Origin: Luteimonas sp. MC1825
Lineage (GTDB): Bacteria; Pseudomonadota; Gammaproteobacteria; Xanthomonadales; Xanthomonadaceae
Direction of reading: 5' to 3'
Assembly: GCF_014764385.1 (NCBI RefSeq)
Contig: NZ_CP061714.1
Location: forward strand, 124,001-188,000
DNA: 64,000 nucleotides
Part shown: positions 42,671 to 60,051 of the stretch, one piece after another
How the letters are laid out: each line of letters begins with the position of its first letter
Position numbering within the stretch: position 1 is the first letter of the stretch
Notes under the pieces: generated by a model
What the model saw: the letters and a program-made list of their open reading frames with translations, nothing else
What the model was told of the DNA's origin: nothing
The model's database searches: none
Program-made: the position numbers and the translations under genes

Positions 42671-42686
42671 TTCGTCGGCGCGGGTG

Positions 42687-42970
42687 CCGGATGCCAATGC
42701 CCTTGAGGACTCATGTCCCCCGGCGATGGCCTGGCGGCCATCGCCTCCTCCTTGACTTCGCCCTCAAGGGCATTGGCACCCGGTACGTCGCAGCGCGCGG
42801 TGGTGGGAGGAGCAAGTGCCACAGCCTGCGATCTGGCGGGTGCTTTTCGTTACCCGCGGGCTGCGCGGAGCCCCGAAGTGGCCGTGAGGCCTTCGCGGGG
42901 AAGTCAAGGAGGAGGCATCCGCCGCCAGGCGGATGCCGGGGGACATGAGCCGCGAAGGCCTCGCGGCCAC
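42687..42970. repeat. Intergenic double nested-hairpin element, copy 1
   Basis: This fills most of the 352-bp gap after glnA. Module A (42687-42783): 21-nt outer arms (20/21 paired) enclose CTCATGTCCCCC, a 10-bp inner stem (GGCGATGGCC/GGCCATCGCC, 42722-42745) and TCCTCCTTGACTTC. Module B (42878-42970): the same core in reverse (GAAGTCAAGGAGGA, inner stem GGCATCCGCC/GGCGGATGCC at 42914-42937, GGGGGACATGAG) inside different 21-nt outer arms (20/21 paired). A 94-bp spacer separates them. Copy 2 at 58453-58733 is the reverse complement of the whole arrangement. The outer arms would form long cruciforms or RNA hairpins. Short ORFs inside are repeat echoes, not genes. Confidence 0.9.
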
Positions 42971-43022
42971 CTCAGGGCCCTGCACGGTTGCATTGCGCGG
43001 CGATCACGGGTTCGATTGCCTC

Positions 43023-57380: not shown

Positions 57381-57386
57381 GTGGTG

Positions 57387-58427
57387 ATGGAGCCCTCGGT
57401 CACGCCGGTGGCCAAGCCGGCGGTAGCGGTGCTGGGCGCGGGCTCCTGGGGCACGGCGCTGGCGGCGCTGATCGCGCGCCACGACCATGCCACGGTCCTC
57501 TGGGGGCGTGATGCAGAGGTGGTCGGCGCGATCGATGCCGGCCACCACAACCCGCGCTACCTGAAGGGCATCGCCCTGCCGGCATCGCTGCGCGCCACCA
57601 CCGACCTCGCCGCGGCCCTGGCCACGGCCGACCTGGTGCTGGTCGTGGTGCCCTCGCACGCCTTTGCCGACACCCTGCGCGCGCTGGCGCCGCTGCGCCC
57701 CGCGCATGCAGGCGTGGCCTGGGCCACCAAGGGCTTCGAGCCCGGGTCCGGGCGTTTCCTGCACGAGGTTGCCGCCGAGGTCCTCGGCCCCGAGGTGCCG
57801 CTGGCCGTGGTGACCGGGCCGTCGTTCGCCATGGAGGTCGCGTCGGGCCTGCCCACCGCGCTCACCGTGCACAGCGATGACCAGATGTTCGCGCAGCGGG
57901 TGGCCGACGTGCTGCATGGCCCGGCGTTCCGCGCCTACACCGGCGACGACATGCGTGGCGCCGAGCTGGGTGGCGCGATGAAGAACGTGCTGGCGGTCGC
58001 CACCGGGGTCGCCGACGGCATGAACCTCGGCCTCAACGCGCGCGCCGGGCTGATCACCCGCGGCCTCAACGAGATGCTGCGCCTCAACATCGCCATCGGC
58101 GGCAAGCCCGAGACCCTCATGGGCCTGGCCGGCCTCGGCGACCTGGTGCTCACCTGCACCGGCGACCTGTCGCGCAACCGGCGCCTGGGGCTGGCGCTCG
58201 GCCGCGGCCAGACGCTGGAAGACGCGGTGCGCGAGATCGGCCAGGTGGTGGAGTCGGTGCAGACCGCCGACGAGGTCATGCGCCAGGCCGAGGCGCACGG
58301 CGTGGAGCTTCCGATCGCCAGCAACGTCCGCGACGTGCTGCACGGCGACATCACCCCGGCCGAAGGCCTGGCACGCCTGCTGGCGCGCGAGCAGAAAGCC
58401 GAGTACCCGGCGAAGCTCTTCGCCTGA
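57387..58427 (+). CDS. gpsA: Glycerol-3-phosphate dehydrogenase [NAD(P)+]
   Basis: 346 aa from ATG 57387 (GTG codons at 57381 and 57384 are alternatives). Motifs: [75 protein letters not shown] with the catalytic Lys, and [16 protein letters not shown]. It makes sn-glycerol-3-phosphate from dihydroxyacetone phosphate for phospholipid synthesis. It forms a rhodanese-secB-gpsA string. The stop is 25 bp from the second nested-hairpin element. Confidence 0.96.
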
Positions 58428-58452
58428 CCCCCGCGGTGGCTTAGAGCCCGTG

Positions 58453-58733
58453 GTGGCCGTGACGCCTTCGCGGCTCATGTCCCCCGGCATCCGCCTGGCG
58501 GCGGATACCTCCTCCTTGACTTCCCCGCGAAGGCCTCCCGGCCACTTCGGGGCTCTGCGCTGGCTGCCAGGAGCGTGACCGTGCGCGAAATTGCGGGCTG
58601 TGGCTTTGCTCCTCAAAACCACCGCAGTGCGACGTACCGGGTGCCAATGGCCTTGAGAGCGAAGTAAAGGAGGAGGCGATGGCCGCAAGGCCATCGCCGG
58701 GGGACATGAGCACTCAAGGCCATTGGTACCCGG
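58453..58733. repeat. Intergenic double nested-hairpin element, copy 2 (inverted relative to copy 1)
   Basis: Module B' (58453-58545): 21-nt outer arms (19/21), CTCATGTCCCCC, inner stem GGCATCCGCC/GGCGGATACC (58486-58509, one mismatch), TCCTCCTTGACTTC. Module A' (58637-58733): GAAGTAAAGGAGGA, inner stem GGCGATGGCC/GGCCATCGCC (58675-58698), GGGGGACATGAG, outer arms 20/21. The spacer is 91 bp and its two ends resemble copy 1. Read in reverse complement, the order and arm sequences match copy 1 at 42687-42970. In A' both arms carry a paired change (GGCC for GCCC in one, GGCC for GGGC in the other), so pairing is preserved. Confidence 0.9.
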
Positions 58734-58748
58734 CGCAGGCGCGCGCAC

Positions 58749-58829: not shown

Positions 58830-59396
58830 TTACCAGGTGAAGCGCGGGCCGACGAACCACTCGGTGTCGCCGCCGGCGAACTTGACGTCACCGTTGATGC
58901 CCCAGTTGGGGTTGAACTTCAGGTTGGCGCCCAGACGGCCATAGAAATCGCCGTCGATGCCACCGTCATAGTCTTCGTAGCCGGCCAGCGCGTAGCCGTC
59001 GAAGTTGCGCGCAAGCGAGCCGCGCACGCCGACTTCGGTGCTCCAGCCGTCGAATTCCAGATCGGTGCCGAGCACGCGGCCCGCATCGAGCTTCTGGTAG
59101 GCGACGCGGGCCAGCAGGTCCGCGCGCGGCGAGATCTCGAGGTTGTAGCCAAGGCCGACCTTCAACTGGTCGACATCGAGGCTGGTGTCGTCGATTTCCT
59201 GGCTGCTGTAGCCGCCGAAGACATGGAAATTGGGATGGAACGAGAACGAGCCGTTGACACCGACGCCGTCGGCATCGATGTCGCCGTTGGTGGCCTGGTA
59301 ACCGGCCTCGACGTAGTTGTAGGTGACGCCTTCGGCGGCCGAAGCGGCAAACGGCAGCGCCGCCGCCAGGGTCAGGGCGATCAGGGAACGCTTCAT
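58830..59396 (-). CDS. Ax21-family outer membrane beta-barrel protein
   Basis: 188 aa from ATG 59396 with a signal peptide (IALTLAAALPFAASA). The mature part is amphipathic beta-strands ending in Trp (WFVGPRFTW, an outer-membrane insertion signal). EGVTYNYVEAGYQATNGD, FHVFGGYSSQEIDD, ARVAYQKLDAG and KFNPNWGINGDVKFAGGDTEWF closely follow Xanthomonas Ax21, a secreted/outer-membrane-vesicle protein once proposed as a quorum signal. No raxST/raxABC genes are in view. It is monocistronic with the terminator at 58749. Confidence 0.9.
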   Translation of the reverse strand: MKRSLIALTLAAALPFAASAAEGVTYNYVEAGYQATNGDIDADGVGVNGSFSFHPNFHVFGGYSSQEIDDTSLDVDQLKVGLGYNLEISPRADLLARVAYQKLDAGRVLGTDLEFDGWSTEVGVRGSLARNFDGYALAGYEDYDGGIDGDFYGRLGANLKFNPNWGINGDVKFAGGDTEWFVGPRFTW

Positions 59397-59586
59397 CGGG
59401 GGAGGACCTCGTGCTTGCTTGTTGTTGTTATAGGTCCGGCCATGGACGGCAGGGGAGGGGAGAGAACCGATCGGGGAAATCGGACCCGCCCATGGCCGGA
59501 GCACGTATTCTCGACATCGCGCGACAACGCAGGCTGAATACTGAACTGGACAGTGCAGGAACTTTCGTGCAGTGCACGGGTCGGGA

Positions 59587-60051
59587 TCACGCCGCGCCGT
59601 CGAACCCCAGCTGCCGCCAGGCCTCGTAGGCCACGACCGCCACCGCGTTGGACAGGTTGAGGCTGCGGTTGCCGGGGCGCATCGGCAGGAACAGGCGGCG
59701 GTCGGCGGCAACGGATTCAAGCACCGCGTCGGGCAAGCCACGCGTCTCGCAGCCGAACAGGAAGGCGTCGCCAGCCGCATAGCGTGGAGCGTCATGGCGC
59801 AGCCGCCCGCGCGCGCTGAGCGCGAACAGCCTGGCCGGTGCGATCGCGGCCAGCGCCGCGGCCAGGTCGTCGTGCACCGCCACCCGTGCGTACTCGTGGT
59901 AGTCCAGCCCCGCACGCTTGAGCTGCCGGTCGTCCATGTCGAAGCCCAGCGGCCGCACCAGGTGCAGGCGGGCGCCGGTGTTCGCGCACAGGCGGATGGC
60001 GTTGCCGGTGTTGGGCGGGATCTCCGGCTGGAACAGGATGATGTCGATCAT
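59587..60051 (-). CDS. trmL: tRNA (cytidine/uridine(34)-2'-O)-methyltransferase TrmL
   Basis: 154 aa, a minimal SPOUT (trefoil-knot) methyltransferase: ILFQPEIPPNTGNAIRLCANTGARLHLV, PLGFDMDDRQLKRAGLDYHEYA, AFLFGCETRGLP and LPMRPGNRSLNLSNAVAVVAYEAWRQ. It 2'-O-methylates the wobble base of tRNA-Leu. The three SPOUT motifs and knot are complete. It is the cytosolic housekeeping gene between the Ax21 gene and the SDR. Confidence 0.96.
   Translation of the reverse strand: MIDIILFQPEIPPNTGNAIRLCANTGARLHLVRPLGFDMDDRQLKRAGLDYHEYARVAVHDDLAAALAAIAPARLFALSARGRLRHDAPRYAAGDAFLFGCETRGLPDAVLESVAADRRLFLPMRPGNRSLNLSNAVAVVAYEAWRQLGFDGAA

What the first reader, a model, noticed from the sequence alone, without database searches (positions are those of the whole stretch)
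42687..42970. Double nested-hairpin intergenic element (copy 1, after glnA)
Two modules each consist of a 21-nt outer palindrome enclosing a 10-bp inner palindrome. The unpaired segments between the stems are the same in both modules but read in opposite directions: CTCATGTCCCCC on one side and TCCTCCTTGACTTC on the other. The outer arms differ between modules while the loops are conserved, so the loops look like the recognised part (by a protein, RNase or transposase) and the arms like a structural carrier. It has no GTAG-type REP tetranucleotide and no transposase nearby. I do not know a described class with this layout.
Basis: partly seen in the sequence, partly recalled or inferred. Interest (0 to 1): 0.85.

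Follow-up and report, generated by a model that had tools for sequence, protein, structure and literature searches.

The report
Paired bacterial hairpins, constant inner loop
Between two ordinary genes lies a pair of short, mobile-looking DNA repeats; one strand of each folds into a hairpin whose stems change freely while a purine-rich inner loop hardly changes, a layout shared by many related bacteria and matched to no described family I could test, which hints at an unidentified partner that reads the loop.

Summary
The window holds two ~104-nt hairpin elements (42684-42787 minus, 42872-42975 plus) and a second pair at 58448-58736. A covariance model finds 28 in the genome and 2 to at least 78 copies in 18 of 52 genomes of the genus; the loop letters occur in at least 120 stretches of named genomes, mostly Burkholderiales. 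Outer and inner helices vary but stay paired (94.1% of cells vs 59.6% shuffled; 779 double-sided changes vs 223). The loop is nearly constant, with a coupled A/G to G/A swap between its sides. Wobble pairs are tolerated on one strand only (G.T 242, A.C 34), so what is kept is the fold of the strand GAAGTCAAGGAGGA...GGGGGACATGAG, as RNA or single-stranded DNA. Neighbouring elements fold outwards in 100 of 110 unique pairs. It resembles a REP/BIME/REPIN composite, but the GTAG foot and the RAYT link failed: Y1 transposase in 13 of 18 carriers vs 20 of 34 non-carriers, absent from the three richest. It is not BRE and matches no Rfam family. Partner, mobiliser and RNA-or-DNA question stay open.

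The parts
42684..42787 (-). Element A (type A), folding strand = minus: ~104-nt nested hairpin
   Evidence: R1 model match 86.5 bits, E 8.8e-18, positions 1-101; fold -76.1 kcal/mol, z -9.8; plus strand -70.5
42872..42975 (+). Element B (type B), folding strand = plus
   Evidence: R1 match 82.8 bits, E 6.4e-17; fold -75.4 kcal/mol, z -8.2; minus strand -76.0
42788..42871 (.). 84-bp spacer between the two outward-folding elements; similar spacers lie between A and B in other Luteimonas copies, by eye
42746..42759 (-). Loop side 1 of element A: GAAGTCAAGGAGGA on the minus strand
   Evidence: conservation
42710..42721 (-). Loop side 2 of element A: GGGGGACATGAG on the minus strand
   Evidence: conservation
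42722..42745 (-). Inner variable hairpin of element A (10 bp)
42900..42913 (+). Loop side 1 of element B: GAAGTCAAGGAGGA
42938..42949 (+). Loop side 2 of element B: GGGGGACATGAG
42914..42937 (+). Inner variable hairpin of element B (10 bp)
58448..58551 (-). Second pair in the window, type B element, after a plus-strand ORF 57381-58427 (glycerol-3-phosphate dehydrogenase by eye, not scanned)
   Evidence: R1 70.8 bits, E 3.8e-14; ORFs
58633..58736 (+). Second pair in the window, type A element, before a minus-strand ORF 58830-59915
   Evidence: R1 80.9 bits, E 1.7e-16; ORFs

Best explanation
A dispersed composite repeat. The usual unit is two ~100-nt elements whose folding strands point away from each other, most often 40-60 bp apart (84 bp here). 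On one strand each element folds into: a ~24-bp outer helix of free sequence and nearly fixed length; a short closing segment (GC/GC, then GAA opposite TGA, most simply tandem sheared G.A pairs); an internal loop nUCAAGGAGGA / GGGGGACA; and an inner hairpin of free sequence and length. Shown: anatomy, folding strand, covariation, near-constant loop, paired layout, patchy multi-copy distribution. Inferred: a trans-acting factor recognises the folded strand through the purine loop, with the outer helix as a fixed-length handle; the element is non-autonomous and was amplified by that factor or by the process it serves; the outward layout gives each DNA strand one functional hairpin, as in REPIN/BIME elements. 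It works like a REPIN but is not a RAYT-type REP. Whether the folded strand is RNA or single-stranded DNA is not shown.
For: Copies: 18 exact vs 0 for the reversed control; 28 by model in the own genome; 18 of 52 genus genomes with 2 to >=78. Covariation over 73 elements: 94.1% of cells paired vs 59.6% shuffled, 779 double-sided changes vs 223, score 0.848 vs 0.191 shuffled and at most 0.153 slid, each 0 of 500 shuffles. Strand: isolated A.C 104 vs G.T 12 on the CATGTCCCCC strand in 75 distinct elements, 54 elements vs 2, 19 ties; model-found set of 129, G.T 242 vs A.C 34 on the folding strand, 100 vs 6, 23 ties; folding strand lower in energy in 71 of 73 (RNA) and 73 of 73 (DNA parameters). 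Arm length: pairing falls from 0.76 to 0.23 between positions 27 and 30 (70 elements). Loop: GGNGGACA in 261 of 267 unique model-found elements; middle letters (A,G) 242, (G,A) 15, (A,A) 1, (G,G) 0. Closing segment: variants replace GCGAA/TGAGC by GCGAA/TTCGC. Layout: 100 of 110 unique adjacent pairs fold outwards, median gap 51 bp; 213 of 271 unique elements have a neighbour.
Against: No mobilising gene was found. No clean empty site with a target duplication: of 8 G604 loci without a partner among the G000 loci compared, at least 3 show remnants in G000, so loss rather than gain. At loci shared by G000 and G604 stems changed in step while staying put, which fits a function in place, quasi-palindrome correction or gene conversion as well as mobility. 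One covariation measure is weak: 29 of 33 pairs change on both sides, but shuffles average 26.9 and 19 of 500 reach 29. Loop constancy is partly built in where the loop was the bait; model-found copies vary more. For element B of the window itself both strands fold about equally well. R1 E-values are rough.
Confidence: 0.5

Rival explanations
1. It is an unusual REP/BIME moved by a RAYT (Y1 HUH transposase) that recognises the single-stranded hairpin.
For: Outward-folding pairs, strand-specific folding and genome-specific stems are REP-like; 14 of 15 named carrier genomes carry one Y1_Tnp gene. A near-constant GGAG precedes the inner hairpin (AGGAG in 69 of 73), though it is not GT[AG]G.
Against: No Y1_Tnp in the own genome. 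In the genus 13 of 18 carriers vs 20 of 34 non-carriers have it (p = 0.38); carriers without it have more copies (p = 0.02), and the three richest genomes (>=78, 52, 43) lack it. None of the 9 Y1 loci I read (of 15 found) has loop letters within ~1.5 kb. The 8 Burkholderiales proteins among them bear Y[IVM][DE]LNP and WE motifs, by eye, resembling a subclass (YVDLNP, WE) listed without REPs in PMC6006769 (passages). GT[AG]G near the outer foot is at chance level; GTAG/GTGG-type palindromes sit in the same interval in other species (by eye).
Confidence: 0.12
2. A host-used structured RNA element (mRNA stabiliser or processing site, or a small RNA) that was dispersed and is kept in place by selection.
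For: Wobble bias and coupled loop swap fit RNA. At one locus shared by 7 Polaromonas genomes the outer stem changes in step, with a one-sided intermediate; the same kind of change at several G000/G604 loci. More often between convergent than divergent genes: 28 convergent, 12 divergent, 46 tandem of 86 (no genome background computed).
Against: For elements single by exact pattern, orientation to neighbouring genes is mixed: 21, 21, 11, 17 in the four classes (tallied). No match in 34 of 52 congeners. No transcription data were available.
Confidence: 0.25
3. A passive repeat: palindromes kept perfect by template-switch (quasi-palindrome) correction and gene conversion, with no recognised loop.
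For: A pair flips from G-C to C-G between orthologous copies (L409 vs L011) and one copy exchanged its whole inner hairpin from type A to type B (L411 vs L010).
Against: Correction should act on both strands alike and does not predict the 7:1 wobble bias, a loop kept across genera while the stems differ, the coupled loop swap or the fixed arm length. A strand-specific C-to-T bias could add to the wobble bias and was not tested.
Confidence: 0.08
4. It is the Betaproteobacterial repeat element (BRE) of Hot et al. 2011.
For: Similar size (75-91 bp), GC (69%) and hosts (abstract and section 14 of PMC3110155).
Against: BRE has 29 copies in Polaromonas JS666. G554, whose contigs of 5200264, 360405 and 338007 bp fit JS666 (5.2 Mb, 360 kb, 338 kb; passage of PMC6015842), has 0 R1 matches and one at E 0.55 in the 1.2 Mb read. 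BRE is described as tandem; this one is mostly outward-folding pairs.
Confidence: 0.03

Closest known systems
REP / BIME / REPIN (RAYT-associated palindromic repeats)
   Same: Short, mostly intergenic, palindromic, in inverted pairs, genome-specific stems, many copies, one strand meaningful.
   Different: ~100-nt two-helix element instead of 21-65 nt (size from a passage of PMC6006769); the constant part is an internal loop of ~26 nt, not a GT[AG]G foot; no RAYT link found.
Beta-proteobacterial repeat element BRE (Hot et al. 2011, PMC3110155; abstract and section 14 read)
   Same: Size, GC content, hosts, mostly intergenic, guessed mobility.
   Different: No match in JS666, where BRE is richest; BRE is reported as tandem, and section 14 describes no hairpin or loop.
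Integron attC sites (recalled)
   Same: Imperfect palindrome recognised as a folded single strand, with stem sequence largely free.
   Different: The constant part here is an internal loop; no recombination site or cassette array was looked for.
MITEs such as NEMIS/Correia elements (recalled; named in PMC3110155)
   Same: Non-autonomous, intergenic, patchy.
   Different: No clean target duplication at the 8 sites examined.
Purine-rich protein-binding RNA internal loops, e.g. the HIV Rev response element (recalled)
   Same: G.G and G.A pairs inside a stem as a protein-recognition surface.
   Different: Analogy only; no partner known here.

Membership tests
REP/BIME with RAYT | GTAG/GTGG (GT[AG]G) tetranucleotide at the 5' foot of the hairpin | tested here: not met
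   GT[AG]G near the outer foot in 5 of 73 elements, background 302 of 3650 14-mers; the inner hairpin is preceded by AGGAG in 69 of 73. Feature as given in passages of PMC2817692 and PMC6006769
REP/BIME with RAYT | Cognate Y1 transposase gene in the genome, flanked by the repeats, its presence correlating with copy number | tested here: not met
   Absent in G000; 13/18 carriers vs 20/34 non-carriers; three richest genomes lack it; no loop letters at the 9 Y1 loci read of 15 found
REP/BIME with RAYT | Inverted pairs of palindromes in intergenic DNA | tested here: met
   100 of 110 unique adjacent pairs fold outwards; 10 of 123 clusters overlap a gene called by my script
BRE (Hot et al. 2011) | 29 copies in Polaromonas JS666 | tested here: not met
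BRE (Hot et al. 2011) | Sequence of the BRE alignment | not testable with these tools
   Figure and supplement not held
MITE | Terminal inverted repeats and target-site duplication | tested here: inconclusive
   8 loci with a G604 element and no G000 partner: no clean duplication seen, remnants in at least 3
Intrinsic terminator | T run shortly 3' of the hairpin | tested here: not met
   TTTTT within 70 nt 3' of the folding strand in 0 of 70 elements
Known Rfam RNA family | Match at the family's gathering score | tested here: not met
   0 over the window; 3 matches in 7 sources, none at an element; at E<=10 only matches below their gathering scores

The most novel reading that the evidence does not exclude
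A distinct class of mobile element whose amplification depends on recognising a folded single strand (RNA or ssDNA) through a purine-only internal loop built on GGNGG twice, possibly a compact G-rich fold, by an unknown enzyme that is not a Y1 HUH transposase and uses the fixed-length helix as a ruler.
Probability: 0.22. Interest if true: 0.85.

Novelty: new variant of a known kind. Interest (0 to 1): 0.62.

Why it matters
Well-studied bacterial palindromic repeats are tied to RAYT transposases and a GT[AG]G foot. Here the stems are free and the inner loop is nearly fixed across two orders, which points to a different recognition mode and an unidentified partner. The constant loop makes this testable: fold the strand, use it as bait, scramble the loop. 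The element occurs in Luteimonas and in many Burkholderiales, so the partner may be widespread.

Tried and rejected
Rejected: (1) RAYT-REP membership. (2) Identity with BRE. (3) Intrinsic terminator. (4) Insertion beside T runs, suggested by some Luteimonas copies: over 70 elements TTTTT 0 and AAAAA 6 of 70 in the 3' flank, 2 and 1 of 70 in the 5' flank, vs 20 and 13 of 322 background 70-mers. (5) GTC/GAC as a conserved helix: invariant in the pattern-found set, broken in model-found variants. (6) A leader or 3'-UTR role fixed by orientation. (7) Phage carriage: 20 IMG/VR stretches hit a looser pattern; by eye only L188 has the hairpin. (8) An autonomous version (elements 1-3 kb apart around a gene) was not noticed by eye in the match lists, which are cut. 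(9) Thought of but not tested: CsrA/RsmA sites, Shine-Dalgarno mimicry, group II intron reverse transcriptase, other transposases.

The counts 3 of 198, 2 of 398 and 4 of 369 include the own genome. Searches used stricter filters and scored only 78 and 11 candidates per genome; G612 reached 78, so its count is a lower bound (the same genome as G499, by coordinates, which gave 88 of 150 scored), and 4 of 369 is a lower bound. Among the 15 (G,A) loop rows one (L122) is a truncated match with doubtful letters; relatedness of copies was not corrected for. The alignment A1 left out 2 of 75 listed elements (L076, L138). A2-A5 were fitted to the model. Gene calls come from a simple script. Matches listed are cut. 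No transcription or probing data were available. Literature: searches; PMC3110155 abstract and section 14, passages of PMC6006769, PMC2817692 and PMC6015842, and a term search without hits in PMC3733652.

Full report
WHAT IS THERE. It lies between glnA (glutamine synthetase, PF00120/PF03951) and an amidase (PF01510), both on the plus strand. It consists of two ~104-nt hairpins, 42684-42787 and 42872-42975; a second such pair lies at 58448-58551/58633-58736. The genome (2.9 Mb, one contig) has 18 copies with both loop halves exact, 0 for the reversed control, 19 with a looser pattern and 28 by covariance model. By eye the copies fall into two types, A and B, that differ in both helices, and the paired units consist of one A and one B facing opposite ways.

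HOW WIDE. Counts that include the own genome: exact loops in 3 of 198 family genomes, a looser pattern in 2 of 398 order genomes. The looser pattern is in 9 of 61 genomes drawn from the genus of a Polaromonas carrier. Exact letters understate this: by model 18 of 52 genomes of the genus carry 2 to at least 78 copies, three of them (G028, G123, G162) without any exact match and, in G028, with a variant loop. A thin class-wide sample with strict filters gave 4 of 369, the own genome included. In viral contigs there were 20 pattern hits, one of them a real hairpin by eye.

ONE STRAND FOLDS. In the G060 and G167 copies the stems differ from those of the own genome while the loops are the same. I aligned 73 distinct elements. 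Over 33 pairs 94.1% of cells pair vs 59.6% in shuffles; 779 cells change on both sides vs 223; the covariation score is 0.848 vs 0.191 shuffled and at most 0.153 with the partner slid. One measure is weak: 29 pairs change on both sides, but shuffles average 26.9. Mispairs in the outer helix are not symmetric: on the CATGTCCCCC strand isolated A.C outnumber G.T 104 to 12 in 75 distinct elements (54 with more A.C, 2 with more G.T, 19 ties). C.T is also common there (103), but sits mainly at two fixed positions near the loop, where the folding strand has G opposite A. On the other strand the A.C are G.T (G.U) wobbles. A second set, found by the model, gives G.T 242, A.C 34; 100 elements vs 6 (129 distinct). 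The folding strand has the lower energy in 71 of 73 with RNA and 73 of 73 with DNA parameters. So what is kept is the fold of 5'-GAAGTCAAGGAGGA-hairpin-GGGGGACATGAG-3'. A wobble bias cannot tell RNA from single-stranded DNA. For element B of the window the two strands fold about equally well (-75.4 vs -76.0 kcal/mol), so the strand rests on the set, not on this copy.

THE LOOP. Outer pairing stops sharply 28-30 nt from the loop (70 elements), so the outer helix has a nearly fixed length, while the inner hairpin varies in length. Next to the loop GCGAA faces TGAGC in the main class and TTCGC in variants; the main class would then have tandem G.A pairs (inference). Beyond this lies a purine loop, AAGGAGGA opposite GGGGGACA. 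In 267 unique model-found elements the middle letters of the two GGNGG are (A,G) 242 times, (G,A) 15, (A,A) 1, (G,G) 0, other 5, motif not found 4. Fisher p is about 2e-23 for the A/G cells, ignoring relatedness, and one of the 15 is a truncated row. Such a coupled swap is expected of a non-standard A.G contact across the loop and makes sense only if the strand is folded. A compact G-rich fold is speculation.

THE UNIT. Of 110 unique neighbouring pairs less than 450 bp apart, 100 have folding strands pointing away from each other, median gap 51 bp; 213 of 271 unique elements have a neighbour (one search gave 114 of 128 and 249 of 313 before removing repeats from overlapping loci). Either DNA strand of such a unit carries one folding hairpin. 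Of 86 clusters with both neighbours called and no overlap, 28 lie between convergent, 12 between divergent and 46 between tandem genes; 10 of all 123 overlap a called gene.

HOW IT EVOLVES. G604 is the nearest relative by the amidase (95% identity). Of 18 loci read in it, 10 align to one of the 19 G000 loci I compared; at one of these (L408) the script found no G604 element. Several show paired changes in place: A-T to C-G (L399/L012), G-C to C-G (L409/L011), one pair (L401/L015), two pairs (L402/L006), an inner pair at the reported locus (L414/L002), and one copy with its inner hairpin replaced by the other type (L411/L010). In Polaromonas a locus shared by seven genomes shows a G-C to A-T change with a one-sided intermediate. 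The other 8 G604 loci have no element at the matching place in G000, with remnants in at least 3, so loss is part of the story. At the reported site G604 has the same pair, while G605, G574, G577, G589, G588 and G613 do not; G577 and G589 carry GTAG-type palindromes there instead, by eye.

WHAT IT IS NOT. RAYT-REP: Y1_Tnp is absent in G000 and, over the genus, present in 13 of 18 carriers vs 20 of 34 non-carriers (p = 0.38); carriers without it have more copies, not fewer (p = 0.02). In 15 named carriers 14 have one such gene, but none of the 9 Y1 loci read carries the loop letters, and GT[AG]G at the outer foot is at chance level. BRE: no match in JS666, where Hot et al. count 29. Terminator: no T run. 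Rfam: none. Papers: the loop letters turned up only in unrelated papers, by their titles.

BEST READING. A REPIN-like composite of a new kind: non-autonomous, recognised as a folded single strand through the purine loop by an unidentified factor. The anatomy is well shown; the factor, the movement and the chemical nature of the strand are inferred. The main rival is a dispersed RNA element with a use for the host.

Noticed in passing
L281-L340 (G554 = Polaromonas JS666), e.g. L282:4020-4150: A different, very abundant GC-rich palindromic repeat (GCCGCGGAACCGG...GCCGCAGGCGCAGCGG with CCCCCTCGGGGGG); single stretches match up to 83 other places in 1.2 Mb. Possibly BRE itself; by eye it too has constant segments between stems.
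   Followed up: partly
L256, L258, L257 (downstream of glnA in G577, G589, G574): GTAG/GTGG-type palindrome pairs, by eye, occupy the interval where G000 and G604 have this element.
   Followed up: no
L411 vs L010: Orthologous copies differ by exchange of the complete inner hairpin (type B inner in a type A outer), suggesting conversion through the constant loops.
   Followed up: no
L211-L217: Seven genomes of the Polaromonas carrier's genus share one element at the same locus (87-92% identity over 1.85-3 kb), with an in-step stem change.
   Followed up: partly
L400:1536-1940: The spacer of this G604 unit holds a short tandem array of CCACAG units.
   Followed up: no
L063:1438-1631: Two xanthine riboswitch aptamers (RF03054) on opposite strands in a Hydrogenophaga record.
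   Followed up: no
L188:5499-5542: The only IMG/VR hit with the true hairpin by eye, on a 5.6-kb contig that may be misassigned host DNA.
   Followed up: no
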